A stretch of DNA of 64,000 nucleotides, from contig NZ_CP066356.1 in the NCBI RefSeq assembly GCF_023278185.1, forward strand, positions 9,051,475-9,115,474. Direction: 5' to 3'. The stretch is from Bradyrhizobium elkanii USDA 76 (GTDB taxonomy: Bacteria > Pseudomonadota > Alphaproteobacteria > Rhizobiales > Xanthobacteraceae). Both the position numbers and the translations under genes were made by a program. The notes below the pieces were generated by a model, which was not told where the DNA came from, searched no databases, and saw only the letters and a list, made by a program, of their open reading frames with translations. Below, in pieces: positions 27,359 to 42,866 of this stretch (position 1 is the first letter of the stretch; each line of letters opens with the position of its first letter).

Positions 27359-28249
27359 TCACTGGCCGGCGTAGGCACCGCGCTCGGTCAGCGCGAATTG
27401 CGAAACGAACCAGTTGCCGTACCAGCGCAGCACCCACGGAATCGGGATCAGGAAGCCGCAGGCGATCGTGAACACGATGGTTCGCCACAGCACCTCGATG
27501 CCGGACGCGTTGAAGCTGACCTCGCGGCGCGTGCCGTCGATGTTGCGGCAGATCCAGCGCATCCAGGCGGTCAGCACCCAGGCCCAGCCGATGATGGTGA
27601 TGGCCGAGACCACCATCGCCACGTACCAGCCGACATAGGCGACCGGGCTGCCCTTGAACGAGATCGGCAGGTCCTGGCCGCTCGAGCTGAGATGGCCGAT
27701 GATCCAGCGCACGATCATCCAGCTCAGGAAGCCCTGCAGCAGCAGCGAGAGCAGCGTCACGATGTTGCTGTTGGCCGCGCCGGCATAGGTCAGAAGACCG
27801 AGCACGATGAAGACCCACCAGATGTCGAGCGGCTGCCCGGTGAAGGCGAAATGCGGGCGGCCCGGCACGCGGATATAGGGGATCGCAAAGCGGTACAGGC
27901 CGGTCGCGGTCCACGGCGCCGGGATGACGAGGATCTGGCCGATAAACATCAAGAGGCTGCGGCCGAACAGGCCCCAGATCGGGAAGTCGGCCGACAGTGC
28001 GCCGCCGCTATAGCTTCCGGACGCCACCACGGGCGGCGGTCCGCCGGCCTGCGGAAATGCCGGCGGCGCGCCGGCACTCGGGACGAGGCCCGGAATTTCC
28101 CCGGCCTTCTGCCAGCCGGCCATGCCCTCGGTCCACACCAAGGTGTCGGCCCCCACCATGCCCCGGGTGATCAGGTCGCGGAGCTGGGTTTCAGGCAGGG
28201 GGCCCTTTTGCTGGCCTTCGGATGCATAAAACCAGTTTCGGTTCGACAT
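27359..28249 (-). CDS. GYF_2 (DUF4339) domain membrane protein
   Basis: 296-residue protein. Residues 1-55 form a GYF_2 domain (NWFYASEGQQKGPLPETQLRDLI...LVWTEGMAGW), a small module that in other proteins binds proline-rich peptides. A Pro/Ala/Gly linker and a C-terminal membrane region with five or six hydrophobic helices (DUF898-like in appearance) follow. Function unknown. AGGAAACAAGAA before the ATG at 28249 fixes the start. It diverges from glnK; the 329 bases between them carry the repeats and promoter elements described below. Confidence 0.8.
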   Translation of the reverse strand: MSNRNWFYASEGQQKGPLPETQLRDLITRGMVGADTLVWTEGMAGWQKAGEIPGLVPSAGAPPAFPQAGGPPPVVASGSYSGGALSADFPIWGLFGRSLLMFIGQILVIPAPWTATGLYRFAIPYIRVPGRPHFAFTGQPLDIWWVFIVLGLLTYAGAANSNIVTLLSLLLQGFLSWMIVRWIIGHLSSSGQDLPISFKGSPVAYVGWYVAMVVSAITIIGWAWVLTAWMRWICRNIDGTRREVSFNASGIEVLWRTIVFTIACGFLIPIPWVLRWYGNWFVSQFALTERGAYAGQ

Positions 28250-28361
28250 TTCTTGTTTCCTCGGGGCGCGCACAGGGACACGCGATAGGCGAAACGAACC
28301 AGCAGGACCGCTGGCCGGGGCGGGAAAGCCACATTGTGGCGGAGCGTTTCCAATCCGTACA

Positions 28362-28375
28362 GTGAGGGACCTCAC
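28362..28375. promoter_or_regulatory. Perfect palindrome upstream of first glnK
   Basis: GTGAGG-GA-CCTCAC, a 6-2-6 inverted repeat in the divergent GYF_2/glnK promoter region. It could be a dimeric regulator site; no known consensus was matched. Confidence 0.4.
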
Positions 28376-28453
28376 GCGCTGCGCATGTTTTCCGCTTCAA
28401 TCTGCAAGTTTTTTATGCCATTTGCCCAGAAAGCTGCCAGATTTGGCGGACGC

Positions 28454-28539
28454 GAAATGCCGCTCGGGGATGGCAAATTGCCGCTCCGGGAGGCAGCAGG
28501 TGCCGGCTCGCGGGACGGCAAGTTCCGCTCCGGGGATGG
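28454..28539. repeat. Four imperfect tandem repeats in the first glnK leader
   Basis: Units of 20-24 bases follow one another: GAAATGCCGCTCGGGGATG, GCAAATTGCCGCTCCGGGAG, then a diverged CAGCAGGTGCCGGCTCGCGG copy, then GCAAGTTCCGCTCCGGGGAT. The second unit boundary contains a sigma-54-like GG-N10-GC arrangement. Confidence 0.65.
28468..28481 (+). promoter_or_regulatory. Possible sigma-54 promoter of first glnK-amtB operon
   Basis: GG at 28468-28469 and GC at 28480-28481 are exactly 10 bases apart, with TTGC at the -12 position. The -24 half (GGATGG) is a poor match to TGGCAC, so this is only a candidate. Confidence 0.3.
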
Positions 28540-28575
28540 GCGCACACGGAAAACCTCAAGGGAATGAAGGCCTGA

Positions 28576-28917
<342 letters not shown>

Positions 28918-28994
28918 GCTTTATCGAGATCATCGCCGGCAACGACGCCGGCGCTCGCCACAACCACACGCCAAGAAACGACGACCGCCGGGGA

Positions 28995-30320
28995 ATGATG
29001 ATGGGGGCACGAGCTCTTCGTGCAGCGATATCAGCTGCGCCGATCACTGCTGCAATCCTGCTCGCGCAGGCCACGCCAGCCTTCGCGCAAGACTCGGCAT
29101 CCAGTTCCGGCGTCAACGCCGCCGACACCGCCTGGATGATCGTCGCCACCGCGCTGGTGCTGATGATGACGATCCCGGGACTGGCGCTGTTCTACTCCGG
29201 CATGGTGCGCAAGAAGAACGTGCTGGCGACGATGGCGCAGAGCCTCACCGCCGTTGCGCTCGTCTCGATCCTCTGGGTCACCTTCGGCTATTCGCTAAGC
29301 TTCGTCGGCGACGGTCCCTGGCTGGGCTCGCTCGATCGCTGGTTCCTGGCCGGCATCACCATGGACAGCATCAATCCGGCGGCGAAGACCATCCCCGAAG
29401 CGCTGTTCATGCTGTACCAGATGACGTTCGCGATCATCACGGTGGCGCTGGTCGCAGGCTCGGTCGCCGACCGCATGCGGTTCTCCGCCTATGTGCTGTT
29501 CTCGATCGGCTGGTTCATCTTCGCCTATGTGCCGCTGGCGCATTGGGTGTGGGGCGGCGGCTTCCTCGCATCGGCGGGCGTGCTGGATTTCGCCGGCGGT
29601 CTCGTGGTGCATCTCTCCGCCGGCATCAGCGGCCTGGTCGCGGCCAAGGTGATGGGCAACCGCCACGGCTATGGCCATGATAATCTTTCGCCGTTCGATC
29701 TGTCGCTCGCGGTGGTCGGCACCGGCCTGCTTTGGGTCGGCTGGTTCGGCTTCAACGGCGGTTCCGCGCTCGCGGCCAATTCGCGCGCGGTGATGGCGAT
29801 CACTGCCACCCATCTTGCGGCCTGCGCCGGCGCGCTGACCTGGGGCGCGATCGAATGGGCGACGCGCCGCAAGCCGTCGGTGCTCGGCATGATCTCGGGT
29901 GCGGTTGCGGGGCTCGGCACCATCACCCCGGCATCCGGCTTCGTCGCGCCGTGGCACGGCGTCATCATCGGCATCATTGCCGGCCTGGTCTGCTTCTGGG
30001 CCTGCACCTGGCTGAAGCATCGCTTCAAATATGACGACTCGCTCGACGTGTTCGGCGTGCACGGCATCGGCGGCCTGACCGGCACGCTGCTTGCCGGCGT
30101 GTTCGCGGCATCGGCGATCGGCGGCACGTCCGGCCTGCTCGAGGGCAATCCGAAGCAGCTGCTGATCCAGCTCTACGGCGTCGCGGCCACCTTTGTCTGG
30201 TGCGGCGGCGTCACCTTCGTGCTGCTCAAGCTGGTCAGCGCCTTCGTCCCGCTGCGCGTCTCGATGCAGCAGGAGCTCGAAGGTCTCGACATCTCGCAGC
30301 ATGGCGAGGCGCTGCAGTAG
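28995..30320 (+). CDS. amtB: Ammonium transporter AmtB, first copy
   Basis: 441-residue Amt/Rh channel with a cleaved signal sequence (ITAAILLAQATPAFAQ) and eleven membrane helices. Conserved features: ADTAWMIVATALVLMMTIPGLALFYSGMVR at helix 1, the pore His in GGLVVHLSAG, and the second twin His in FGVHGIGGL. It moves ammonia/ammonium and is gated by GlnK encoded just upstream. The periplasmic loop after helix 4 is short (WGGGFLASAGV), as in E. coli and unlike the second copy. Three ATGs in a row open the gene; the first is used. Confidence 0.96.
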   Translation: MMMGARALRAAISAAPITAAILLAQATPAFAQDSASSSGVNAADTAWMIVATALVLMMTIPGLALFYSGMVRKKNVLATMAQSLTAVALVSILWVTFGYSLSFVGDGPWLGSLDRWFLAGITMDSINPAAKTIPEALFMLYQMTFAIITVALVAGSVADRMRFSAYVLFSIGWFIFAYVPLAHWVWGGGFLASAGVLDFAGGLVVHLSAGISGLVAAKVMGNRHGYGHDNLSPFDLSLAVVGTGLLWVGWFGFNGGSALAANSRAVMAITATHLAACAGALTWGAIEWATRRKPSVLGMISGAVAGLGTITPASGFVAPWHGVIIGIIAGLVCFWACTWLKHRFKYDDSLDVFGVHGIGGLTGTLLAGVFAASAIGGTSGLLEGNPKQLLIQLYGVAATFVWCGGVTFVLLKLVSAFVPLRVSMQQELEGLDISQHGEALQ

Positions 30321-30447
30321 CAGCCGAGCTCGTTTCGCCTGGACACGATGGGCGCCGCGAGCGCGAATTCGCAAAACAACCCCATGCAAAGTATCCGAGC
30401 GCCGCGACGTCACGGCGCACGGCACGTGGATAATTCAGGCTTGCGCA

Positions 30448-30471
30448 ACACATAAGTGCGTGCTTATGTGT
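30448..30471. promoter_or_regulatory. Perfect operator-like inverted repeat before the arsR gene
   Basis: ACACATAAG and CTTATGTGT are perfect 9-bp arms around TGCGTG, ending four bases before the ATG. The 12-2-12 style and position are typical of ArsR autoregulatory operators, where binding blocks the promoter or the ribosome site. Confidence 0.75.
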
Positions 30472-30475
30472 AGCC

Positions 30476-30790
30476 ATGGTCGACACCGACATCTTCAAGG
30501 CGCTGGCCGATCCGACCCGCCGCAAGGTCTTTGAGAAGCTGGCCGGCGGCAGCCTGAACGCCAGCGCCTTGCGCGACGGACTTGAGATCAGCCAGCCGGC
30601 GATGTCGCAGCATCTGGCGGTGCTGCGCGCGGCAGGGCTGGTGCGCGAGCAGCGCCAGGGCCGTTTCGTGAATTATGAGGTCGACCCGGACGGCATCGCC
30701 AGCATCGGGACCTGGCTCGCCCGCTACCGCGCCTATTGGCCGAAGCGCATCGAAGCGCTCTCCGATCTGCTGAAGGACATGGATCAATGA
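30476..30790 (+). CDS. ArsR family winged-helix regulator
   Basis: 104-residue dimeric repressor. It begins with IFKALADPTRRKVFEKLAGG and has the recognition helix in ISQPAMSQHLAVLRAAGLV, followed by the wing REQRQGRFVNYEV. No metal-binding CxC motif is present, so it belongs to the non-metal branch that often regulates a neighbouring SRPBCC gene. The SRPBCC gene overlaps its stop codon (ATGA), and a clpP paralogue follows, so all three are probably cotranscribed and repressed from the 30448 operator. Confidence 0.92.
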   Translation: MVDTDIFKALADPTRRKVFEKLAGGSLNASALRDGLEISQPAMSQHLAVLRAAGLVREQRQGRFVNYEVDPDGIASIGTWLARYRAYWPKRIEALSDLLKDMDQ

Positions 30791-31143
30791 GCGACACAAT
30801 TGAACCTGATCATGCCGACGCCGGCCTGGTGCTCGAATACGAGCTCGATGCACCGCCTGAAAAAGTCTGGCGTGCGGTGACCATTCCGGCCCTGCGCGAA
30901 CGCTGGCTGCCGGATTGCGACCTCGCGGACGCTGAACCCCTCTCATCGATCGCCGGCGAAGAGGTGCGCTTCCGGCTGCGCGAGTCCGAGCCGCCGTTTC
31001 GGGAAAGCCATGTCACCTTCCGGATCGAGCCGAACGAGGCCGGCGGCACCCGCTTTCGCATCATCCAGCAAGCCTGCGACATCAGGGGAAAGCAGCCGCA
31101 ACCGGCCAACAGCAACAACCGCGCAATGATGCGCGCGGCCTGA
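30787..31143 (+). CDS. SRPBCC (AHSA1-like) domain protein
   Basis: 118-residue ligand-binding domain. [29 protein letters not shown] is the standard N-terminal strand-helix of AHSA1-like SRPBCC proteins, and [17 protein letters not shown] makes the central sheet. The C-terminal helix is short and ends in a Gln/Asn/Ala-rich tail instead of the usual long helix, so the cavity may be open or the gene trimmed. The start overlaps the arsR stop as ATGA. Ligand unknown. Confidence 0.85.
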
Positions 31144-31195
31144 TCCCCAACCTCACCTACCGAGACTTCATCACCTGCAGCAATGGAGGTCGCCG

Positions 31196-31822
31196 ATGCG
31201 CGACATGATGCAACTCGTCCCTATGGTCATCGAACAGTCGAGCCGCGGCGAACGTTCCTTCGACATCTATTCCAGGCTCCTGCGCGAGCGCATCATCTTC
31301 CTGAACGGCGAGGTCAATGATGCGATGTCCGGACTGGTCTGCGCGCAGCTGCTGTTCCTCGAGGCCGAGAATCCACACAAGCCGATCAACCTCTACATCA
31401 ACTCCTATGGCGGCGTGATCACCAGCGGGCTTGCGATGTACGACACCATGCAGTTCATCAAGGCGCCGGTGCACACGCTGTGCATGGGCACGGCGCGCTC
31501 GATGGGATCGTTTCTGCTGATGGCCGGCGAGCCCGGTCACCGCGCCGCGCTTCCGAATGCGAGCCTCCACGTGCATCAGCCGCTCGGCGGCTTCCAGGGC
31601 CAGGCGTCCGATATCCTGATCCATGCCACCGAAATGCAGGAGACCAAGCGGCGCATCATCCGGCTCTATGCGCAGCACTGCGGGCGGACCGAGGCCGACG
31701 TGGAACGGACCCTGGATCGCGATCACTTCATGTCCGCGCAGCAGGCGCTCGAATGGGGACTGATCGACAAGGTCTTCGCCGAACGCGACGCCGCCGAAAA
31801 ACATGATCCGGTGCCGCGCTGA
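31196..31822 (+). CDS. ClpP-family serine protease paralogue
   Basis: 208-residue ClpP-type peptidase. The catalytic triad is intact: Ser102 in [10 protein letters not shown], His127 in LHVHQPLGG, Asp176 in DRDHFMSA. It differs from the housekeeping ClpP around the active site: Arg precedes the Ser (canonical AASMGA) and SYGGVITSG replaces SPGGVVTAG. No clpX or tig is adjacent, so this is an accessory ClpP. Its place behind ArsR and SRPBCC genes suggests induction by a small ligand or stress. The start has GGAGGT nine bases upstream. Confidence 0.88.
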
Positions 31823-31850
31823 TCTTCGTCGCTGGAGCGGCCAAACCGTT

Positions 31851-33656
31851 TCATGACAGCGCCATCGATTCAGGCTTCACCTCGGCATGCTGCACCGTGA
31901 CCCGCACGGCATCGGGACGGCTCGATCCTCCGCGCCTGCCGCCGCCGCGGTGGTCGATCAGGCGCGCGACGACAGCGCGCCGCGCATGACGAGGCGTCAG
32001 CGAATGGTCGGCGTTCGGCAGCGTCAACCGCGTCACTCCAGGGATGCTTGTGAGCCGTTTGCCGTCCTGACCGAAATGCCGTGCGATCTCCTGCAGGCTG
32101 AGATCGCCGTCCGAGGTGACCATGAGGACGCGCACGCCGCGGCTGCAAAGCTCGCGCATCCAGCGCTCGACGCGGTTACGACCAAGCAAGGCGGACGGAT
32201 GCATCGCCGACAGCGTCGACTTGACGGCTTCCAATCCGCGCCGCACCAGCCGCCTGGCGCTATCTGACACTGACAGCTTCCAGGCGGACCTGGTCGTCAT
32301 CGCAGGCCCGTCCGCCGGACCGATCTGCTGCTGGCTTCCGCGATTCGCCTTGGAGGTTTCGTATGCTTTCCAGGCCGTAAGCTCCAGCGCGTAGGAACTG
32401 TTCCAGGCAAAGCAGAGCGGGTTGATCATGGTCAGGGCGCGGACGCGGCGGTCCGCGCGCGCAGTGTGAAAGGCCTGGAAGGCGCCCGAGCATGTGCCCA
32501 CAAGCTCGACTTTGGCAAAGCCCGCCCGCTGCATCCAGTCAATCGCCGCGCTGACGTCGAAGCGGGTGCTGGAATCATAGAGGAACAGACGATTGCTCCC
32601 GGCATCGTCGCTCAGGCCGAGGCCCGGCAGGTCAATGCGTAGCGACGCCACGCCGGCGGCGGCAAGCTCGCGCGCCGCCTCGACCGTGCCGCGCGCCCAA
32701 CCGACATGCGGCACGCCGCCAGAGTTGAGGAAGATGACCGGATCGGCCGCAGCATGGCCGTCACGCGGCCGGGTCAGCACGCCACAGATCAATGGCGCCT
32801 GCCTGATCACAACCGGCTCTTCCGTGTAGTGCGATCCCTCCAATAGCTCGCGGCCGGTCAGGGAATCGACGCCCTGAGCTACGCCGGCGACGGCCCGGTC
32901 GGACAACCAATCCGCCCAGCAACCGACAACGTCGGCCGGGATCCGGTTCGCGGTCGGGTCGCACATGAGCAGGTGATAGTCCTTGAACTCGGCGATTGTC
33001 GCGCCTTCGAAAGAAGATCGACCGTCGCGGATTTCAGAGCCTGCCAACGGCTTTCCGTTCGCGAGCAAAAGCATCGGCAGGGGCGGAAGGGCCGCGACGG
33101 CCTGCCGCCAATCCAGCCTCGACAGATCGGCGAGCGTCTCATGCGAAAGCCGGAAGCCGACGGCCTCGCGTCCCTCGGCGAGAGTCGCCTCGCTCGCAGC
33201 GCTCTTGGCGAGCGTCCCATCGATCACGCGCGACATCGCGGTGATTTCGCGCACATAGGTTTTGCCGGAACCCGGTGGCGCCAGCAAAGCAAGGCCCGCC
33301 ACGTCATCGCGTCCCACCGCGGCGAGCGGGGCCAGCAGCGCACCGAGCCGGAAGCCGGCGAGGATGACATCCTCCACGCCGCAATCTCGCTTCAACCGGT
33401 CGATCGCCGCGCCGATGCTTGCAGTCCAGGCCATCACCTGGCCCGGCGCCGCGTGGTCGCCGGCCGCGTTGCCGCAGCCGGGATAGTCAAACAACAGGAC
33501 AGGCAGGCCCGCCGCGGCCGCCTTGTCGGACAACAGCTTCAGGAACCGGCGACTGCACAGATCCTCATGACCGTGCGCGCCGGCAATGACGACACCCCGC
33601 CTTCCTTTCGCTTCGTTCAGCCAGCCGATGGTATCGGCAAAGACAACTGGTTTCAT
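31851..33656 (-). CDS. Tandem alpha/beta-hydrolase protein, last gene of the carrier-protein operon
   Basis: 601 residues with two alpha/beta-hydrolase domains. In domain 1 (about 1-260) the nucleophile elbow reads GFRLG at 101-105, with Arg103 where Ser should be, so it is probably inactive or structural. In domain 2 (about 285-575) the elbow is GTCSG at 387-391, making Cys389 the nucleophile, with acid candidates Asp516/Asp518 and His551 in ADHSLT completing a Cys-Asp-His triad. This resembles the exosortase-associated hydrolase pairs that have an R in the elbow, here fused. A Cys nucleophile on a thioester pathway suggests acyl transfer rather than hydrolysis. Its start overlaps the GH2 stop (ATGA). 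Confidence 0.75.
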
Positions 33657-36202
33657 GTCATGCTCCCGGCGGACTCATTTGTCCGCCCGACTTCCAATTC
33701 TTCCGCTCTGGGCGCCGCGTAGCTCATGTCGCGATCGGCATTGAGCGCCGTCACTGTGCCGCCAGGCGTCGCCACATGCGGACCGTCAAGGCCGACCTCC
33801 CGCTCGGTGCCCGGCATCAGGTGAAAATTGTTCTCTCCTGGAACGAACAGATCGTCCTGGATGGAGACGTGATAGGCCGCGCGTTTGCAGGCGAGCCGCA
33901 GCCGCCACGCGTCCTTCCGACGCACCAAACTCACAGTCAGGCCCACGTCGCGCCGCGCGGTCATGACATCCGGCAGCACATGGAAGGCCTCGGCAAGGAC
34001 CTTCCCGTCATCGTCCTCCAGCCTTGCCACGGTGACTTCATGTCCGGGCGGCCCGAACCGATAGGCGTAGGAGATATCGAAGAAAGCGCCGAGCACCGAG
34101 AAGGCCGAAAGCGACAGGCCACCGTGCGCCGGCACGCTGATCGGCCGGCGCGCCGACACCACCGCCGTGACGCCGTCCCGCAGACAGGTCAGCGACAACG
34201 TCGCCTGGACGGTCTTCGCGGTATCGTTGACGGCATGGACGGTCAGCCCGTTGACGCCCTCATCGCTCAGGATCAGCCGCAGCGGGGCAAATGCGCGCCT
34301 CAGCCCGTGCCAGACGGGCTTAGGCCGGCCGGTCGAATCGACCACGCCCCAGCCCGCGCCTGGCCGCAAGTCCTTCCAGAAGAACAGCAGCGCTCCGGCC
34401 GTCGGCGAACAGGGTCTGCGCCATTCGTCGATGGTGCGCTCCACCACCTCGGTCGTCACCGCACGGGAAAGCTCGAGATAGCGACTGGTATTCTCGGTGC
34501 GCAGCCGGCGCGCGTCGACGGAAAAATGCGTCTCCAGATAATGCTCGCGCACATCCTCGAAGTCCCAGGAGGCGCCGACGTCGCGCGGCACACCCGCCTT
34601 CCAGCGCGGATCGTGCACCGGCGGCACAGGCAGTTGCGCATCCAGCGTTGCCTTGTCAGGCACATTGGCAAAGGCAAGGCATTCGCTCGCGAAGCGCACC
34701 TCGGCCCGGCGCGCGTCATCCAGCGGACGGCAATAGGCACCGACCCCGTAATAATGCGTCGGCCCGCCATCGGTCGTGAACGGCAGGTTGCCGCCGGATG
34801 GCGATGACGTCACAAGCACCACGTCGGGACGCTGCGCTTCGGCGATGGGGCGCACCACCTTGTCGAACCAGGGCGTCGGATCCATCGACATCGGCAAGCC
34901 CATCATCGCCGCCTGCTGCGCCACCTCGCTGCCGCCGCACAGAACGGCGAGTGACGGCGAATGCCTGAGCCGCCCGAGCAGATTCCCGACCTCGCGCGAG
35001 AGCGACGCCTGCCAGGCTTCGTCCTTCGCCGGATAGTCGAAATTGGCGAGCATCAGGTCCTGCCAGACCAGGATGCCCATCTCGTCGCAAAGCTCGTGAA
35101 ATGCGTCGCTCTCATAGACGAACGTGCCGCCGACCCTGAGCATGTTGACCCCGGCCCGCCGCGCAAGATCGAGGTCACGCGCGACTTCCGCGCGCGAGGA
35201 CGGCAGCCGCACCGGATCGGACGGCGTCCACACCGCGCCACGGCAAAAGACGGATACGCCATTGACAACCAGCCGAAAGCCGCGGCCGTCGGCGCCACGA
35301 TCGATCTCGATATGCCGGAAGCCGACGCGGCCGAGTGCAATTCGCATCGGGCCGAGCGTCAGGACGACCTCGTGCAACGCCGGTTCGCCATGGCTGTTCG
35401 GCCACCATGGCGCAACGTTCGCGATATCCAGCCTTGCCGTCAGCTGCGTGTCTGTCTCGGCCGTCAACGCGGCGACAGCGCCCGCACAGGCGATCATGGC
35501 CGGCGTGCCGTCTAACGGCTCGACCAGCGTGACCGTGACCGAAAGATGCCCTGTCGTGCCGGCGAGGTCGGCCCGCATCTGCACATCGCGCACGGCTTGA
35601 CGATCGGTATCGCGGATCAGCTTGATCGGCCGCCACGGTCCGACGATGTCGAAGCCCGGGGACCAACCCGGCATATGGCCGATCAGCGTGGTCCGCACGA
35701 GCCTCAGCCGCTGATCGTCGATCATGCGCGGCCTCCAGCGCGCACGCGGACCGGTCAAGGTTTCCAGATGGCGCTTGAGGCTGCGGAATGCGATGACCAG
35801 TTGCTCGCCGCCGGCAAGCGTCAGGGCCACATCATGGCGCTCGAACATCGAGGTCGAGGACAGCACGAGGCGATCGTCGAGCCAGACCTCCGCGACCGTC
35901 GCCAAGCCGTCAAATACAAGACGGACGGGTCCTGCGGCATCGAGCCGGCGACGATACCAGACGTCCTGGTCGTGCAGCGGAGCGGGATGGTTGCGGTCCC
36001 AGCGGCCAAGCGCTTCCAGCGCAGCTGCGGCCGTGCCGGGGCACGCCGCCTCCAGCCATTCGGCACCGCCGTCGACCGCCGCCGGAGACGCCCACGCGCC
36101 GGCCGGCGAGACGGCCATGCGCCAGCCGCTGTCCAGGAGCTCGGCCGTCTCGGTCGTCGACACAAAAGTGTCCGTGCACACACGCATTCCCATGACCGGC
36201 AA
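33653..36202 (-). CDS. Glycoside hydrolase family 2, beta-mannosidase-like, cytosolic
   Basis: 849 residues with the GH2 architecture: sugar-binding jelly roll (about 20-200, [10 protein letters not shown]), immunoglobulin-like domain (about 205-310), TIM barrel (about 315-640) and C-terminal beta domains. The barrel has [16 protein letters not shown], and the putative acid/base Glu426 lies in CGGSEV, where GNNE is usual. The putative nucleophile is Glu507 in FASEC. Both glutamates are retained, so it may be an active exo-glycosidase, most like beta-mannosidases. There is no signal peptide, so its substrate must be inside the cell. Starts at 36193 or 36187 are alternatives. Only 7 bases separate it from the DUF1839 gene. 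Confidence 0.85.
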
Positions 36203-36209
36203 GCCAGTC

Positions 36210-37208
36210 CTATGCTGCCTTACTGGCGAGATCCGTCATACGACCGTCCAGCGCGTCCATCACCGTTTGCCAGGCCTTGGCCATCGGCCCGATGCCGTCC
36301 GCTAGCCCATCGAACCGATGCCGGGCCATGGCGCGGGCGAGCTTGAATTGCATGACCTTGGCGCCCTCGGCGATCGACGCGGCGGCTTCGATCGCCTCAG
36401 CGAGACTGGTTTCGCCGTGCCGGCCCAGCCATTCCAGATGACTGGAGAGAAGTTCGAAATTGGCGCCCACCTGCCGCAACGTGTTGAAGGCGTAGACGTG
36501 AAAATACTCCGATGACCGGCCGGCCAGCACCTCGGCATGGCGGCCGAACACGGCCGCGTAAGCGTCGAGCGGATTGCGCTTCGGCCTGCGCCGCAGATGC
36601 TGCGCGAGGATCTCGGTAGCCGCACCGACCGAATCGCGCGAAGGGCGCGTGGCGTCGAATTTGACGAACTCGGCATAAGGAAACAGCGGCAGGCCGCCGG
36701 CCGGCGCGCCGTCGCGCTGTCCGAAAATGCCGTCGTAGTCGTCGCCGTCCAGCGCAAAGTAGCCGTCGTTGTGGAAGTAGGCCATGTGGCGGCGCCCGGG
36801 AACGAGCACGTTGATGCCGACCGTCGTCTTGGAATGGCCGGTGCGATAGGTGATGCCCTTGGTGTCGGGCAGATGGAAGGCATCGACCTCGACCAGCGGC
36901 AGCCGCCCGCGCTCGATCTGATTAAGAACATGCGTCTCCAGGCGATCGAACACGGACAGTTCCTGGATATCCAGGCCGGCCAATCGCTGCAGGTCGGCCG
37001 TCGGGAATTTGAAGAACGTGAACTGGTCGCCTTCGAAATCCTGCGCGACGGTGAAGCCGAGCGCCGCGACCGGGTCATTCCCGGTCGCATGCATCACCTC
37101 GATCAGCAGATCGACATAGCAGTTGGTCTGTGGCCATCGCCGCTCCGGATCGTGCAACCAGTGCGGCTTGTGGGCGGCCGGATCGAGCCCGGCGATGGCG
37201 CTCTTCAT
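36210..37208 (-). CDS. DUF1839 protein, putative aminoacyl transferase
   Basis: 332-residue protein of a family often found with amino acid:carrier-protein ligases; function not established. What can be seen: an N-terminal [14 protein letters not shown] with Cys30, then [13 protein letters not shown], and [14 protein letters not shown] with His125 followed by MAYFHNDGY. This Cys ... DAF/LP ... His order looks like the papain-like fold of BtrH_N proteins, whose prototype moves an acyl chain from a carrier protein to an aminoglycoside. I infer that DUF1839 takes the aminoacyl group from the carrier protein encoded in this operon. The C-terminal 150 residues are helical and unassigned. Confidence 0.8.
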
Positions 37209-37223
37209 TTCAGTTGCCCCAAA

Positions 37224-38147
37224 TCAGTTGCTCCAAAGCGTCTCGCGCACGGAAGCCGGCCAGGCCTCGACGTCAGGGCCGTGATGGCGGAACAGCGCGA
37301 GCGCCACGCGCTCCAGCCCGAAGCCGACGCAGGCCGAGTGGCACAGGCTGCCATCCGCGAACTTCAGGCCCCAGGTCTGGCCGAAATGGTCGCGATGGTA
37401 GTTGAAGGACAAGCAGGCCGTCGGTTTCTCGATACTGGTCACCGGGATCAGCAGCTCGAACTTGAGTCCTTCGTCGCGCTGGTTGTTGGCCATCATCCTG
37501 CCGCCGCGGCCGAAGAACGGATCGTTGGCGAGGTCAACTTCGCACGGCAGGTCGAGTGATTCGATCATCGCCTTGCCGCGCTCCAGCCAGCTTTCGCGGA
37601 AGGCGCACACCTGCTCAGCCGTCCCGATGCGGACGAATTCGCGCATGCGGAAGAGCTGCATGCGCGCCGGATCCTTGGAAGGCTCATGACGGAAGCAGTA
37701 AGAGGAAAGCTCGAACAGCACACCGTCATCGGGCACCGGACCGCGCGCGGCAACGGTCGGATAGAGCGGATAGCAGGCGGCCGGCGTCAGCACCACGTTC
37801 GTCGCCCGCTGCAGTTCGGTCCAGTCCTCTCCCGCGGCCATCATGCCGAGAAGCTGCGCATGCTCGCGCTCGCCGCCCATGAAGGAATGCACGCAGCCCG
37901 CAAGCTGCGGGAAACTCTTCATGTAACCGCTGCCTTCAAGCGTGGCGCGACTCATGCCCGGCGGGAAGTGGATGCGGGTTGCCTTGTCCGGCGCTCCGAT
38001 GCTGGTCACGAGCCGCTCAAAGCGCTCGATCACGTCTTCGAAAACGCCGGAGCGGCCATAAAGCCCGTCTACTCCGGTCCTGAACAGGATGCTCTTGTCG
38101 AACAGAGTGTCGAGCAGGCTCGTGGCATCGAACGTCTTGGCGTCCAT
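37224..38147 (-). CDS. Amino acid:[carrier protein] ligase (class II aaRS homologue)
   Basis: 307 residues resembling only the catalytic core of an atypical seryl-tRNA synthetase; no tRNA-binding arm is present. Motif 2 is seen in [20 protein letters not shown] and motif 3 in [12 protein letters not shown]. The zinc ligands expected for this family, Cys-Glu-Cys, are at Cys125, Glu170 and Cys273. Characterised Bradyrhizobium homologues activate glycine (an Agrobacterium one alanine) and attach it to the phosphopantetheine of a small carrier protein. The amino acid used here cannot be read directly. The gene lies one base from the flavoprotein gene and 15 from the DUF1839 gene, in the middle of the six-gene operon. 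Confidence 0.92.
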
Positions 38148-38148
38148 C

Positions 38149-39351
38149 TCAACCTCTCAGGCTGGTGTCAAAGCGGCTCATCAGCAGGAGCGTCGCGGTG
38201 TTGGAAAGAATGCGGTCGTTCGAAATCATCACCGGCGCTGAGCTCACATCGCGCAGATGCCTGCCGACGCTGAACGGCGTGCCGTTCTTGTAGCCGACGA
38301 TGCCGTTGATCTGCATGGCGAGCCGCACGATCGCCCCCGCCTTCTCGCTCGCGGCGACCTTCAGCGCGTTGATCTCAGCGGTGAAGCCGATCGAGGAGAG
38401 CGCGTCGTCATTGCCCTTGGCCGCATCGAAGCGGTGAATGGCCGCCGCGAGATGACCCTTCATCTCCTGAAGCAGGGCGGCCGCTTCGGCGAGCCGTAGC
38501 GCACCCGGCGGGAGACTTCCATCCGCCTGCTTGCGCGCCGCAGCCTTGACGAACGCTTGCGCACGATTGAAGGCGTCGGTGGCGATACCGAACCAGGTCG
38601 CGCCCCAGAAGATATGCGAGCTCGCCAGCATCGACTGCGCCGCGATCTCCGAGAACGGCTTGGGGAAGATCTGCGCCGCGTCACCGTGCGCGACAAGATG
38701 GAAACCGTCCGAACAGGTGCCGCGCATTCCGAGGGTGTCCCATACGGAGGTGCGCTCCAGCGTGCGGTTCAGGTCTGCGGGAATGACAACCATCACCTGA
38801 TCGGAGCTTGCGGCGTCCGGAGCGCGCCGCGCCGTGGCGAGAATTGCGTCGGCATGGCGGCCGTAGGAAATGACGGTCGCTTCCTTGGTCAGCGAGAAAC
38901 GGCCGTCCGCCACTTCAACCGCACAGATCGAATTGCGCAAATTGCCGCCGATGCCGGCTTCCGTGGTCGCGGAGGCCATCAGCAACTGCTCGGCCGCAAT
39001 GCGACGCATATAGGCCAGATGCCAGTCGCTGGCGCCGCCGTGGCTGACGAAGCTCGACGTCTTGATCTGATGCATGGCGTAGATCATGGCGCTCGAGCCG
39101 CACGCCTGGGCGAGCTGGACGATGAGATCCGCGATCTCCATCGTGCCCAATCCCTCCCCGCCATGCTCGACGGGGATCGCGACGCCGAGCAGGCGCTCGC
39201 GCTTCAATACTTCGATGGTGTCGGCCGGAAAACGGCCCTCGCGGTCAACCGCGTCGACCTGCTGTGCGGCGATCTTGGCGACCCGACGCATGCGCTCGGC
39301 CGGCGTGTCGGCAGAGGCCGGCACCGGCTCTATCATTCTCACCACGCTCAT
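38149..39351 (-). CDS. Acyl-CoA-dehydrogenase-like flavoprotein acting on the carrier protein
   Basis: 400 residues with the acyl-CoA dehydrogenase fold: N-terminal helices ([14 protein letters not shown]), middle beta domain ([19 protein letters not shown], with the FAD-binding T/S pattern), C-terminal four-helix bundle. The C-terminal segment that usually carries the catalytic base (YEGT) reads MISNDRI, so the canonical Glu is absent and the chemistry or base differs. Four bases separate its ATG from the carrier-protein stop codon, which fixes the start. It probably oxidises, or otherwise modifies with flavin, the aminoacyl group bound to the carrier protein. Confidence 0.85.
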
Positions 39352-39355
39352 GGTG

Positions 39356-39601
39356 TTACGCCGCCTGCTGTGTAAGCCGTGAAACGGCGTCCGCGACGTT
39401 GGAGAGCGACGAGAAGGTCCGTCGCGTGAGCATCGCTTCGGGAAATTCGATGTTGAACTCTTCCTCAAGCGCCAGCATCACCTGCACCGTGGCGAAGGAT
39501 GTCAGCCCTGCGTCATAGAGATTCGTGTCGTCGGTGATCGTGCTGAAATCCAGCGAAATCATCGGCTGCTGCTCGAGCAGCGCGCGGATACGATCAATCA
39601 T
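39356..39601 (-). CDS. Acyl carrier protein-like aminoacyl carrier
   Basis: 81-residue four-helix carrier protein. The phosphopantetheine attachment site is Ser35 in DAGLTSFATVQVML, which has the LTSF form typical of carrier proteins served by stand-alone amino acid ligases in place of the fatty-acid DSLD form. The acidic helix II (ALEEEFNIEFPE) would contact partner enzymes. It is the first gene of the operon. GGTGGG lies upstream of the ATG. It requires a phosphopantetheinyl transferase, not encoded in the window. Confidence 0.92.
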   Translation of the reverse strand: MIDRIRALLEQQPMISLDFSTITDDTNLYDAGLTSFATVQVMLALEEEFNIEFPEAMLTRRTFSSLSNVADAVSRLTQQAA

Positions 39602-39662
39602 GATGGCCCACCTGTCACTGAAGTACGTATAAAGACGGCCAATAGCGCACCGACAGCATCGG

Positions 39663-39676
39663 CAGCGTTAACGCTG
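39663..39676. promoter_or_regulatory. Perfect 14-bp palindrome upstream of the carrier-protein operon
   Basis: CAGCGTTAACGCTG, about 62 bases before the carrier-protein ATG. A likely dimer-binding site; a related GTTCG-GTAA-CGAAC inverted repeat is 27 bases further out. Confidence 0.5.
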
Positions 39677-39702
39677 GAAATGCAACGTGGCAGACGGCTA
39701 AC

Positions 39703-39716
39703 GTTCGGTAACGAAC
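39703..39716. promoter_or_regulatory. Inverted repeat GTTCG-GTAA-CGAAC
   Basis: Five-base perfect arms, sharing the TAACG core with the palindrome at 39663. About 102 bases before the carrier-protein start codon. Confidence 0.45.
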
Positions 39717-39736
39717 ACTGCCGAAAGTGCGGGACT

Positions 39737-39753
39737 TGTACCGTCTTGGTGCG
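39737..39753. promoter_or_regulatory. NtrC-like site
   Basis: TGTACC-N5-GGTGCG matches the NtrC enhancer consensus TGCACY-N5-GGTGCA at 10 of 12 positions. It lies about 410 bases before the sigma-54-like promoter of glnK but only about 140 from the opposing operon. Confidence 0.4.
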
Positions 39754-40002
39754 CTTGCCGCATACGGCCCTGGTCCGCCTCGCGCAGAACGGCGCGGCGA
39801 TGATGCCCGCTACTGGCTTCGCTTGTCTTCGCGGATCTCGGCGCAGGTCACGTCCCGGGGGCGGGAATTCAGGCAAGCCGATGAAGCCCAACGGCAAATT
39901 CCCTCGGCGCAATCCGTCCGGCAGGCTCGCGAATCGACGTCCCGATCGACGGTGGTCGCAGGCTGCGGAACGGCCTGGCAGCTGTGTCTGGATACCGTCC
40001 CC

Positions 40003-40019
40003 TGCACTGTGGCTGAGCA
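40003..40019. promoter_or_regulatory. Weak NtrC-like site
   Basis: TGCACT-N5-TGAGCA has one perfect half-site and one degenerate half. It lies about 145 bases upstream of the sigma-54-like promoter, the usual enhancer distance. Confidence 0.3.
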
Positions 40020-40162
40020 GAATTGTGTTCGGAGTTGGCCGTGCCTGCGTTCTAGACAGGCCTGACCATATTTTAGGCGCGGCGGAATAGCGCAGGGGCA
40101 CCTCCCTCCCGCAAAGCGGGAAAAGGTCCGGATTCATAATCCATTAGCGAACTCCGGCCGTT

Positions 40163-40178
40163 TGGCACGGCATTTGAT
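40163..40178 (+). promoter_or_regulatory. Sigma-54 promoter of second glnK-amtB operon
   Basis: TGGCACG-N4-TTGAT matches the consensus TGGCACG-N4-TTGCW at every position except C to A in the -12 GC. It lies 107 bases before the glnK ATG. Nitrogen-controlled glnK-amtB operons are classically driven from such promoters with NtrC. Confidence 0.65.
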
Positions 40179-40227
40179 TCTAAGGGTCCAGGCTGTGCCC
40201 GCGTAGTGGATGTCCTCCGCGTGGTGA

Positions 40228-40623
<396 letters not shown>

Positions 40624-40662
40624 TTTCGCGCTCAAACCTTAAGACCTCAGGAGTGAAATAAC

Positions 40663-42111
40663 ATGACGTTCAAGCGTCCCTACGGCGCGGGACTTGCGGC
40701 CCTTGCAGTCGGCCTGTTCGCCGCGACCGCCGCCTACGCCGAGCCGACCGTCAACAAGGGCGACAACGCCTGGATGTTGACCTCGACGGTGCTGGTGCTG
40801 CTGATGACCATCCCCGGCCTCGCGCTGTTCTATGGCGGCCTGGTCCGCTCCAAGAACATGCTCTCGGTGCTGGCGCAGGTGTTCTACACGGTCTGCCTCG
40901 TCACCGTGCTCTGGGCCCTCTACGGCTACAGCCTCGCCTTCACCGGCGGCTCCGACTTCATCGGCGGCTTCTCCAAGGCCTTCCTGATGGGCGTCACGCC
41001 GGACTCGAAGGCGGCGACCTTCTCGGTCGACGCCAACATCTCGGAGCTCGTCTATATGTGCTTCCAGATGACCTTCGCGGCGATCACGCCGGCCCTCATC
41101 GTCGGCGCCTTCGCCGAACGCATGAAGTTCGCGGCGATCGCGCTGTTCATCCCGCTCTGGGTCACCCTGATCTACTTCCCGATCGCGCACATGGTCTGGT
41201 ACTGGCCGGGCCCGGACGCGATCCAGGATGCCGCCAAGGCGCTCGCCGCCGCGGCTGACGGCGCGGCCAAGACCGCGGCGCAGGCCAAGCTCGACGAGAT
41301 CAACGCCGATGCCGGCTGGATCTTCAAGAAGGGTGCGATCGACTTCGCGGGCGGCACCGTCGTGCACATCAACGCGGGTATCGCCGGCCTGGTCGGCGCG
41401 CTGCTGATCGGCAAGCGGACCGGTTACGGCAAGGAGCTGATGGCTCCGCACTCGCTGACCATGACCATGATCGGCGCCTCGCTGCTCTGGGTCGGCTGGT
41501 TCGGCTTCAACGCCGGCTCCAACCTCGAAGCCAATGGCGGCGCTGCGCTCGCCATGACCAACTCCTTCGTGGCCACGGCCGCGGCGGCGTTGTCCTGGAT
41601 GTTCGCGGAATGGATCATCAAGGGCCATCCCTCGCTGCTCGGCGCGCTGTCGGGCGCGGTCGCGGGCCTCGTCGCGGTGACCCCGGCGGCCGGCTTCGCC
41701 GGTCCGATGGGTGCCATCGTGCTCGGCCTCGTGGTCGGCGTGGTCTGCCTGTTCTTCTGCACGGTCGTGAAGAACGCGCTCGGCTATGACGACTCGCTCG
41801 ACGTGTTCGGCGTCCACTGCGTCGGCGGCATCGTCGGCGCGCTCGGCACCGGCATCCTGGTCAACCCGGCGCTCGGCGGCGCAGGGATCATCGACTACAC
41901 CGCGATCCCGCCGAAGGTCGCCGACTACGACTTCGCGGCGCAGATGATCTCGCAGGTTTGGGGTGTCGGCACCACGCTGGTGTGGTCGGGCATCGGTTCG
42001 GCGATCCTCTACAAGATCGTCGACGTGATCGTCGGCCTGCGCGCCAACGTCGAGACCGAGCGTGAAGGCCTCGACATCACCGAGCACACGGAGCGCGCCT
42101 ACAACATGTAA
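40663..42111 (+). CDS. amtB: Ammonium transporter AmtB, second copy
   Basis: 482-residue ammonium channel with a signal peptide (LAVGLFAATAAYA), the helix-1 block DNAWMLTSTVLVLLMTIPGLALFYGG, the pore His in GGTVVHINAG and the second His in FGVHCVGGI. Compared with the first copy it has an insert of nearly 40 residues in the periplasmic loop after helix 4, rich in Ala, Lys and Asp (from PGPDAIQDAAKAL to INADAGWIFKKGA). Such loops occur in other proteobacterial AmtB proteins. GlnK from the preceding gene should gate it. A strong hairpin and a T-tract terminator follow. Confidence 0.96.
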   Translation: MTFKRPYGAGLAALAVGLFAATAAYAEPTVNKGDNAWMLTSTVLVLLMTIPGLALFYGGLVRSKNMLSVLAQVFYTVCLVTVLWALYGYSLAFTGGSDFIGGFSKAFLMGVTPDSKAATFSVDANISELVYMCFQMTFAAITPALIVGAFAERMKFAAIALFIPLWVTLIYFPIAHMVWYWPGPDAIQDAAKALAAAADGAAKTAAQAKLDEINADAGWIFKKGAIDFAGGTVVHINAGIAGLVGALLIGKRTGYGKELMAPHSLTMTMIGASLLWVGWFGFNAGSNLEANGGAALAMTNSFVATAAAALSWMFAEWIIKGHPSLLGALSGAVAGLVAVTPAAGFAGPMGAIVLGLVVGVVCLFFCTVVKNALGYDDSLDVFGVHCVGGIVGALGTGILVNPALGGAGIIDYTAIPPKVADYDFAAQMISQVWGVGTTLVWSGIGSAILYKIVDVIVGLRANVETEREGLDITEHTERAYNM

Positions 42112-42139
42112 AATTAACGGCCCTTGAGGCCGTTAATTT
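42111..42139. terminator. Hairpin directly after amtB
   Basis: AAATTAACGGCC and GGCCGTTAATTT are perfect 12-bp arms around CTTGA, beginning on the last base of the stop codon. The AT-rich outer stem gives a T-containing 3' arm, so it may act as a first terminator or protect the mRNA end. Confidence 0.7.
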
Positions 42140-42224
42140 GAGTTCTCCCGGGGCGCGACCTCCCCAAGCGGTCGTTCCCAGAACTACGGTCCGGACACAT
42201 ACCCGGCAATGTCCGGGCCGTTGA

Positions 42225-42260
42225 GGGGCTCCAGCGCAAGCTGGGGCCCCTTTCTTTTTT
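42225..42260 (+). terminator. Rho-independent terminator of glnK-amtB
   Basis: GGGGCTCCAGC and GCTGGGGCCCC form an 11-bp stem with one mismatch around GCAA, followed by TTTCTTTTTT. Another stem, GGTCCGGACA...TGTCCGGGCC (42189-42220), stands in front. Confidence 0.85.
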
Positions 42261-42340
42261 CCGCGGCTTGAGAAAATATTGTCGGAATTGCCTGCCATTG
42301 TGGAATGACAGGCTACCAACAACGAAAACGGGAGGATGTC

Positions 42341-42745
42341 ATGAAGGTGCAGGGCAGGTGCTATTGCGGCAACGTGCGCTATGAGGCCGAGGGCGAGCCG
42401 ATGATGGCGGCGCAGTGCCTGTGCCGGGAATGCCAGTACATCACGGGCGGCGGACCGAACATGTTCATGGCGATGCCGACCACCGGCTTCAAATACACCG
42501 CCAGCGAACCCAAGCAGTTCACCCGCAAGGACCTCGACCGCGCCGTGACGCGCGAGTTCTGCCCGGAATGCGGCACGCATCTCGTGACCAAGGTGCCGGG
42601 CCTGCCCGCCACCATCCTGAAGGTCGGCACCTTCGACGACCCCTCGGTGTTCACCCCGCAGATGACGATCTACACCTGCGACAAGCAGACCTTCCACCAC
42701 CTGCCCGAGGGCAAGCCGTCGTTCGAGAAGCTGCCGGCGCGGTAG
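42341..42745 (+). CDS. GFA (glutathione-dependent formaldehyde-activating-like) zinc protein
   Basis: 134-residue protein of the GFA/CENP-V family. Zinc-binding cysteines appear in CYCGN, CLCRECQ and CPECGTH, the standard arrangement for two zinc sites. Despite the family name, most members have no shown role in formaldehyde metabolism. The start at 42341 is preceded by GGGAGGA; a longer frame from 42305 is less likely. Monocistronic after the strong amtB terminator. Confidence 0.88.
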   Translation: MKVQGRCYCGNVRYEAEGEPMMAAQCLCRECQYITGGGPNMFMAMPTTGFKYTASEPKQFTRKDLDRAVTREFCPECGTHLVTKVPGLPATILKVGTFDDPSVFTPQMTIYTCDKQTFHHLPEGKPSFEKLPAR

Positions 42746-42762
42746 TCGCCCCGCATCGGTGC

Positions 42763-42851
42763 GTAGCCCGGATGGAGCGCAGCGCAATCCGGGTCTGGCC
42801 TATCCGCGGACGAAGCGGCCCCCGGATTTCGCTTCGCTTCATCCGGGCTAC
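42763..42851. repeat. Inverted repeat (GTAGCCCGGATGGAGCG family)
   Basis: The arms GTAGCCCGGATGGAGCGCAGC and CGCTTCGCTTCATCCGGGCTAC separate the convergent GFA and Nudix genes. It is clearly the same element as 24970, which is also between convergent genes. Confidence 0.85.
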
Positions 42852-42866
42852 GATGCTCGAGCCCTG

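What the first reader, a model, noticed from the sequence alone, without database searches (positions are those of the whole stretch)
31851..39601. Six-gene operon around an amino acid:[carrier protein] ligase with glycosidase and Cys-nucleophile hydrolase
Reading leftwards, carrier protein, flavoprotein, aaRS-like ligase, DUF1839, GH2 and tandem alpha/beta-hydrolase genes are packed with gaps of 4, 1, 15, 7 and -4 bases, so they form one transcript. The ligase keeps the family's Cys-Glu-Cys zinc set (125/170/273) and motifs 2 and 3 but has no tRNA-binding domain. The carrier has Ser35 in LTSF. Homologues of the ligase are known to glycylate or alanylate carrier proteins, but their end product is unknown. 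The GH2 and fused hydrolase genes point to a glycoside as acceptor or intermediate. Proposed logic: amino acid loaded on the carrier, flavin-dependent modification, transfer by DUF1839 to a sugar-bearing acceptor, trimming by GH2, and acyl transfer or release by the Cys hydrolase.
Basis: partly seen in the sequence, partly recalled or inferred. Interest (0 to 1): 0.92.

Follow-up and report, generated by a model that had tools for sequence, protein, structure and literature searches.

The report
Carrier-protein operon that likely decorates polysaccharides
A horizontally acquired six-gene cassette in a Bradyrhizobium-like genome appears to load an amino acid onto a small carrier protein, modify it and attach it to a sugar, perhaps of a surface polysaccharide, which would give a long-orphaned enzyme family a job.

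Summary
In detail: six minus-strand genes (31851-39601) with gaps 4, 1, 15, 7, -4: carrier protein, acyl-CoA-dehydrogenase-fold flavoprotein, aa:[CP] ligase, DUF1839, GH2, tandem alpha/beta-hydrolase (HYD). Four relatives lack the ~8.2 kb block that holds all six genes; the tree nests it among Mesorhizobium copies. DUF1839, modelled at pLDDT 92, is closest to CcbD, AziU3/U2 and CtaG; CcbD moves an amino acid from a carrier protein to an amino sugar. HYD keeps one Cys-His site, is fused in frame to a polysaccharide flippase in one genus, and lies near Wzz genes more often than chance. In the one genome with HYD but no DUF1839, an amino-acid adenylation enzyme and the same carrier family adjoin it in a polysaccharide locus. 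Best reading: aminoacyl-carrier-protein decoration of an exopolysaccharide sugar. Flavin chemistry, GH2 role and product are inferred; the window's genome and the seven plasmid loci opened show no linked polysaccharide cluster.

The parts
39356..39601 (-). Carrier protein (81 aa), Ppant attachment Ser35
   Evidence: PF00550; NF005480 95.7 bits, cut-off 72; Ser35 78/78 rows; one copy over the cut-off in each of 23 genomes searched
38149..39351 (-). FLAV: acyl-CoA-dehydrogenase-fold flavoprotein (400 aa)
   Evidence: PF02771, PF00441; AF2 pLDDT 86; nearest folds ACADs, KijD3, DszC/TdsC, ColB1, tied
37224..38147 (-). LIG: amino acid:[carrier protein] ligase (307 aa)
   Evidence: NF005479 492 bits; 'ligase 1'/Bll0957 entries are the best PDB match; C125/E170/C273 78/78
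36210..37208 (-). DUF1839 (332 aa), papain-like, likely nucleophile Cys30
33653..36202 (-). GH2, beta-mannosidase-like, predicted cytoplasmic (849 aa; TTG start)
   Evidence: PF22666; PDB beta-mannosidases, best E 3e-41; both acid residues E426 and E507 78/78; no strongly hydrophobic N-terminus
31851..33656 (-). HYD: tandem alpha/beta-hydrolase, pseudo-enzyme half plus Cys389-His551 half (601 aa)
   Evidence: TIGR03101 + TIGR03100 stretches below their cut-offs; C389 and H551 51/51
31799..39968 (.). Inserted block (~8.17 kb) holding all six genes; absent from 4 of 4 same-genus relatives compared
   Evidence: window 28190-31798 and 39969-42858 are adjacent (15429/15430) in L170; L171-L173 also lack the block; L002 (B. 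pachyrhizi) has it; no shared 8-mers between the two ends

Best explanation
The operon is a carrier-protein-based pathway that attaches an amino-acid-derived acyl group to a sugar, most likely an amino sugar of a Wzx/Wzy-type exopolysaccharide or its lipid-linked unit. Steps: (1) LIG adenylates a small amino acid (glycine or alanine by family precedent, recalled) and loads it on CP Ser35-phosphopantetheine [known for the family; residues shown here]. (2) FLAV oxidises the carrier-bound aminoacyl group, at the amine or at C-alpha [inferred]. (3) DUF1839 takes the acyl group onto Cys30 and hands it to a sugar amine, as CcbD does [inferred from fold, Cys and context]. (4) GH2, with both catalytic acids, breaks or remakes a beta-glycoside in the cytoplasm, for example releasing a glycosyl handle from the modified sugar [inferred; least certain]. 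(5) HYD, through Cys389-His551, makes the final acyl transfer to, or editing of, the polysaccharide unit near the flippase [inferred from the Wzx fusion, the Wzz neighbourhood and the CP-HYD pair in L174].
For: Co-inheritance: GH2 78/80, FLAV 78/80, LIG 77/80, CP 77/80 of the 80 best of 549 loci; 398 genomes: DUF1839 in 16; ligase over cut-off in all 16; full-length HYD in all 16 and in 1 of the other 382. Empty site. DUF1839 fold; CcbD mechanism. Polysaccharide link: Wzz within 20 kb of DUF1839 in 7/22 (6/22 with the operon's own copy in G446) and of HYD in 8/22 genomes, 0.59 expected; Wzx-HYD single ORFs in L152 and L117; glycosyltransferase, Wzx, Wzc/Wzz, ATP-grasp, acyltransferase, GH5, export and ManC genes beside it in chosen loci; L174 adenylation enzyme + same carrier family + HYD + Wzc + Gmd. 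Active sites kept.
Against: In the window's own genome the nearest Wzz is 362 kb away, and 15 of 22 genomes have no Wzz within 20 kb of DUF1839 on the same contig. None of the seven plasmid loci opened lists Wzx, Wzy or Wzz genes; only an exopolysaccharide production repressor (L124) and a GT9 plus sulfotransferase (L129) are annotated (that gene table is incomplete). DUF1839 has no sequence match to any solved structure at E<=1, so residue-level equivalence to CcbD is not shown. Two actinobacterial MAG contigs (L077, L080) have DUF1839+GH2 without CP/FLAV/LIG nearby, and L041 lacks LIG. 12 of 398 genomes have the ligase over its cut-off without DUF1839. No substrate or product was measured.
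Confidence: 0.46

Rival explanations
1. The operon makes a small diffusible amino-acid glycoside (a lincosamide- or aminoglycoside-like signal or antibiotic). The sugar is borrowed from the cell and GH2 removes a protecting or carrier sugar; the polysaccharide genes near it in some lineages are incidental.
For: DUF1839's nearest folds (CcbD, AziU3/U2, CtaG) come from small-molecule natural-product pathways (pathway names partly recalled). The cassette stands without a listed polysaccharide cluster in the window and in all seven plasmid loci opened.
Against: No dedicated exporter or sugar-biosynthesis gene in the cassette. Wzz proximity and the Wzx-HYD fusion point to a polysaccharide.
Confidence: 0.32
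2. It is a lipid A or LPS-core aminoacylation system, functionally like AlmEFG or Dlt, protecting against cationic peptides.
For: Same logic of amino acid ligase, carrier and transferase (Alm and Dlt recalled; a DltA-like adenylation enzyme takes the place of LIG in L174).
Against: The neighbours that were scanned are Wzx/Wzz/Wzc, glycosyltransferases and sugar-nucleotide genes; no lipid A or LPS-core gene was recognised among them. No membrane-bound acyltransferase in the cassette.
Confidence: 0.1
3. A catabolic cassette: GH2 and hydrolases degrade an acylated plant glycoside; CP, ligase and flavoprotein process the released acid.
For: GH2 and hydrolases are usually degradative; many hosts are root- or soil-associated genera (genus names; habits recalled).
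Against: A carrier protein with its own ATP-using ligase is normally biosynthetic. GH2 shows no secretion-type N-terminus and no uptake transporter is in the cassette. DUF1839's fold is that of condensing enzymes.
Confidence: 0.05
4. GH2 and HYD are hitch-hikers; only CP-FLAV-LIG(-DUF1839) form a pathway.
For: The ligase occurs over its cut-off without DUF1839 in 12 of 398 genomes; in six such loci read in full it stands with CP and FLAV and without GH2 or HYD.
Against: GH2 78/80 loci; HYD 16/16 against 1/382 genomes; active-site residues kept.
Confidence: 0.04

Closest known systems
Lincosamide synthetase (LmbC/CcbC adenylation, LmbN/CcbZ carrier, LmbD/CcbD condensing enzyme)
   Different: Activation by an aaRS-like ligase instead of an A domain; extra flavoprotein, GH2 and HYD; no sugar-biosynthesis genes in the cassette; no sequence similarity detected
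Aa:[CP] ligase clusters of the Bll0957 type
   Same: CP-FLAV-LIG core; LIG 52%, FLAV 47% and CP 34% identical to a same-genus copy, L142 (that L142 is of the Bll0957 type is by eye)
   Different: CP gene divergent and no DUF1839/GH2/HYD beside it in the six lists read in full (L142-L147); this genome has one ligase only
Exosortase A-associated hydrolases 1 and 2, carrier and AMP-ligase of polysaccharide loci
   Same: HYD is a fusion of hydrolase-2-like and hydrolase-1-like halves; L174's adenylation enzyme also scores with ligase_PEP_1
   Different: HYD scores 79 and 76 bits against cut-offs of 203 and 168; exosortase found in 1 of 23 genomes, not the window's
ColB1, flavoprotein dehydrogenating carrier-bound cysteine (7xp7)
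AlmEFG and DltABCD (recalled)
   Same: Works like: amino acid, ligase, carrier, transfer to a surface glycan
   Different: Ligase family, transferase family and accessory enzymes differ

Membership tests
Amino acid:[carrier protein] ligase | Curated family score (NF005479) | tested here: met
   492 bits, cut-off 357
Amino acid:[carrier protein] ligase | Zinc ligands kept, tRNA-binding domain absent | tested here: met
   C125/E170/C273 78/78 rows; 307 aa, matches only the catalytic part of SerRS models
Amino acid:[carrier protein] ligase | Acylates holo-carrier and not tRNA | not testable with these tools
   needs enzyme assay
CcbD/CtaG-type carrier-dependent condensing enzyme | Papain-like domain plus C-terminal helical domain, full-length fold | tested here: met
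CcbD/CtaG-type carrier-dependent condensing enzyme | Cys-His-acid catalytic triad | tested here: inconclusive
   C30, H125, T128, H146 all 81/81 and D157 0.99, but no residue alignment to CcbD was available; PMC10318531 proposes a C(T/S)H triad
CcbD/CtaG-type carrier-dependent condensing enzyme | Transfers carrier-bound acyl to an amine | not testable with these tools
   needs assay
Acyl-CoA dehydrogenase | C-terminal catalytic Glu (MCAD type) | tested here: not met
   I376, at least 90% conserved, aligns with the residue after the Tyr of IYTGTNQ in 7p98; that this is the MCAD Glu position is recalled, 7p98 itself lacks Glu there, and some ACADs carry the base elsewhere
Exosortase A-associated hydrolase 1/2 | Curated family score | tested here: not met
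   76 and 79 bits against 168 and 203
Exosortase A-associated hydrolase 1/2 | Exosortase in the same genome | tested here: not met
   PF09721 in 1 of 23 genomes, not the window's
GH2 beta-mannosidase-like | Both catalytic Glu residues present | tested here: met
   E426 and E507 78/78, aligned with Glu of beta-mannosidases; that these are the acid/base and nucleophile is recalled
Wzx/Wzy exopolysaccharide modification system | Linked to polysaccharide genes more than chance | tested here: met
   Wzz within 20 kb: 6-7/22 (DUF1839) and 8/22 (HYD) against 0.59 expected
Wzx/Wzy exopolysaccharide modification system | Linked to polysaccharide genes in the window's own genome | tested here: not met
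   nearest Wzz 362 kb away

The most novel reading that the evidence does not exclude
A horizontally mobile pathway in which an aminoacyl-tRNA-synthetase-derived ligase loads an amino acid on a dedicated carrier, a flavoprotein oxidises it in place (for example to an N-oxygenated, imino or glyoxylyl group), a CcbD-like cysteine enzyme amidates an amino sugar with it, and a Cys-His hydrolase coupled to the Wzx flippase installs the decorated unit in an exopolysaccharide. This would be the first function for bacterial aa:CP ligases and a new class of polysaccharide substituent.
Probability: 0.28. Interest if true: 0.88.

Novelty: new variant of a known kind. Interest (0 to 1): 0.72.

Why it matters
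[quoted passage not shown] The comparison here ties one branch of them to a specific transferase (DUF1839), a glycosidase and a cysteine hydrolase, and in part of the lineages to polysaccharide genes, so the end product can now be looked for in a defined place. It also offers function hypotheses for DUF1839 and for the tandem hydrolase, and suggests that a similar logic can run with a DltA-like adenylation enzyme instead of an aaRS-like one (L174).

Tried and rejected
GH2/HYD as hitch-hikers: rejected by co-occurrence. An exosortase A system: rejected, cut-offs not met and exosortase in 1 of 23 genomes. Transposon-borne cassette: no shared direct or inverted 8-mers between the two ends. Nitrogen-regulated promoter: simple sigma-54 and FixK patterns upstream of CP matched 1 and 0 of 78 upstream regions, none in the window (patterns recalled). 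FLAV reaction type from fold: not resolved, since ACADs, N-oxygenases (KijD3) and monooxygenases (DszC) tie. BtrH, the aminoglycoside acyltransferase that I had in mind, did not appear among the listed fold matches, which says nothing either way. Literature searches: DUF1839 (one paper, passages); aa:CP ligase terms (four papers, none on it by title; one review, passages); exosortase A hydrolases; glycine or glycyl with exopolysaccharide in rhizobia (only listings seen, except passages of PMC12419801, which do not treat the operon); AlmEFG (listing); Atu2571/Atu2573/Bll0957/aminoacyl carrier protein (four papers, two looked into by passages, gene list and table only); CcbD/LmbD (passages of PMC12945683 and PMC4351081). 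None showed an experimental study of the operon; the library lacks most subscription journals. The gene caller in my scripts was home-made (codon log-odds) and chose antisense frames for some genes (for example DUF1839 in L018, L052, L057, and in L077/L080), and neighbours are named only where a Pfam or NCBIfam scan was run or where I say so; the neighbours of the close Mesorhizobium copies (L003-L008) were not scanned.

The HYD profile held sequences of 7, not 6, of the 16 positive genomes.
Full report
What is there. Six minus-strand genes lie between a ClpP-like gene and a PII-ammonium-transporter pair, with gaps of 4, 1, 15, 7 and -4 bases. In order of transcription: carrier protein CP, flavoprotein FLAV, amino acid:[carrier protein] ligase LIG, DUF1839, a GH2 protein, and a 601-aa tandem alpha/beta-hydrolase HYD. 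The genome is 9.5 Mb; the closest named copy of this locus is in Bradyrhizobium pachyrhizi (L002, 94% over 12.3 kb). The genome holds one DUF1839 and one ligase and one carrier over the family cut-off.

One unit, acquired. In a draw of 40 same-genus genomes, the window's included, only this one had DUF1839. In the relative G587 (locus L170) window positions 28190-31798 and 39969-42858 abut (15429/15430), so an ~8.17 kb block with exactly these six genes is missing there; three further relatives also lack it. No repeats were seen at its ends. A DUF1839 tree of 28 rows puts the window with B. pachyrhizi (100/99) inside a set of 15 whose other members are Mesorhizobium plus one unnamed proteobacterium (100/99; forks just inside are weaker). 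The cassette also lies on plasmids: 59 of 72,556 plasmid records match DUF1839; in the 7 that I opened the five genes CP-FLAV-LIG-DUF1839-GH2 stand in the same order, with an alpha/beta-hydrolase listed next to GH2 in 4 of 7. On a Rhizobium gallicum plasmid it follows nifHDK...fdxB.

A scan of species genomes found 549 relatives of DUF1839, of which the best 80 were kept, so this set leans to close relatives. Among them GH2 was found in 78 (the contigs of the other two end within 2.2 kb of DUF1839), FLAV in 78, LIG in 77, CP in 77, HYD within the 9-kb flanks in 50. Two actinobacterial MAG contigs have DUF1839 and GH2 only. In a draw of 398 proteobacterial genomes (the listed handles agree between the calls), DUF1839 occurs in 16; the ligase is over its cut-off in all 16 and in 12 others, with 16 further genomes holding weaker matches; a full-length HYD match (495 bits or more; all other listed matches were 146 bits or less) occurs in all 16 and in one of the remaining 382 (Fisher P about 1e-27, about 1e-18 by genus). 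Limits: related genomes are not independent; the HYD search scored the three best candidates per genome; 7 of the 16 gave a sequence to the HYD profile, so only the other 9 are independent hits. In a set of 22 DUF1839 genomes HYD lies within 22 kb of a DUF1839 gene in 20 (19 if the operon's own copy is used in G446); in G302 and G384 it is on another contig about 4 kb from a Wzz gene.

The polysaccharide link. In those 22 genomes a Wzz chain-length gene lies within 20 kb of DUF1839 in 7 (6 with the operon's copy in G446) and of HYD in 8; 0.59 would be expected from the number of Wzz genes and genome sizes, P about 2e-5 for 6 and 5e-8 for 8 (positions assumed uniform; five of the 22 are one genus and add no hit). 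In L152 and L117 (same genus, perhaps one event) a single ORF of about 1100 codons reads Polysacc_synt_3 followed by the two hydrolase halves. Pfam scans of chosen neighbours in alpha- and betaproteobacterial loci gave glycosyltransferases, Wzx, Wzc/Wzz, a sugar-transfer ATP-grasp, an Acyl_transf_3, GH5, Poly_export and ManC. Against this, 15 of the 22 genomes have no Wzz that near, the window's genome none within 362 kb, and none of the seven plasmid loci lists Wzx, Wzy or Wzz (incomplete gene table).

The exception. G511 is the one genome with full-length HYD and no DUF1839. There HYD follows a carrier of the same curated family as this CP (110 bits, cut-off 72) and an amino acid adenylation enzyme (TIGR01733, 346 bits, cut-off 317), between Wzc and a GDP-mannose 4,6-dehydratase. 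LIG and DUF1839 were not found in that genome and FLAV and GH2 not in that locus. So HYD is tied to an amino-acid-loaded carrier and a polysaccharide locus even there. ManC beside HYD or DUF1839 in L108 and L156 and a beta-mannosidase-like GH2 hint at a mannose-derived acceptor; this is speculation.

FLAV, GH2, HYD. FLAV goes with CP and LIG also where DUF1839 is missing (six gene lists read in full, L142-L147), so it most likely acts on the aminoacyl-carrier. It lacks the C-terminal Glu of MCAD-type enzymes (the position is recalled). Its fold matches tie between dehydrogenases, KijD3 and DszC, with ColB1, which oxidises carrier-bound cysteine, among them. GH2 keeps both acids in 78/78 rows and has no strongly hydrophobic N-terminus, so it should act in the cytoplasm. 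HYD keeps C389 and H551 in 51/51 rows while its N-half has no Ser or Cys at the elbow. Rows shorter than a set length were left out of these alignments.

Mechanism and confidence. Loading of CP by LIG: about 0.9 (family knowledge). Transfer by DUF1839 from the carrier to an amine: about 0.65. Sugar acceptor: about 0.65. Polysaccharide as the destination: about 0.46. FLAV acting on the carrier-bound group: about 0.55. The GH2 role is open.

Novelty. Each enzyme type is known; the combination, its co-inheritance with HYD and the polysaccharide link were not found in my paper searches, apart from the remark on glycans for DUF1839. I rate it a new variant of a known kind, carrier-protein-dependent aminoacylation of sugars, with a route to answer an acknowledged open question.

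Noticed in passing
window 28578-30320 and 40285-42111: Two related ammonium-transporter units flank the operon: both amtB genes and the PII gene at 40285 are Pfam-confirmed, and window 28578-28917 is about 78% alike to the PII region of the second unit in L170, so the insertion lies inside a duplicated nitrogen-regulation locus.
   Followed up: partly
L022, L026, L028, L029, L031, L032 and others (families f6 and f7 in 30 loci each, f8 in 25, of the loci clustered): In Rhizobium-type loci three genes that read like an EpmA-like lysyl-tRNA-synthetase paralogue, an EpmB-like aminomutase and EF-P lie just upstream of CP (named by reading, not scanned). Probably synteny, but it places two aaRS-derived modification systems side by side.
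   Followed up: no
L077 and L080 (actinobacterial MAG contigs): DUF1839 and GH2 occur without CP, FLAV or LIG in the stretch held, beside what read like ribosomal protein and glmM genes; their acyl donor is unknown.
   Followed up: no
L107, L108: Two genomes of one betaproteobacterial-type family (f66: G446, G517) carry a second DUF1839 copy, next to ManC, Wzc and HYD in L108, possibly a diverged duplicate with its own acceptor.
   Followed up: partly
L174 (G511): A minimal version: amino acid adenylation enzyme + same-family carrier + HYD in a Wzc/Gmd polysaccharide locus.
   Followed up: yes
L146: DUF1839-free CP-FLAV-LIG cluster with an Abhydrolase_3, an AMP-binding enzyme and a Wzz gene within 10 kb: a second possible polysaccharide branch of the ligase family.
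   Followed up: partly
window 31196-31822: The ClpP-like gene next to the insertion ends differently from its homologue in L170, so the insertion seems to have replaced its last codons.
   Followed up: partly
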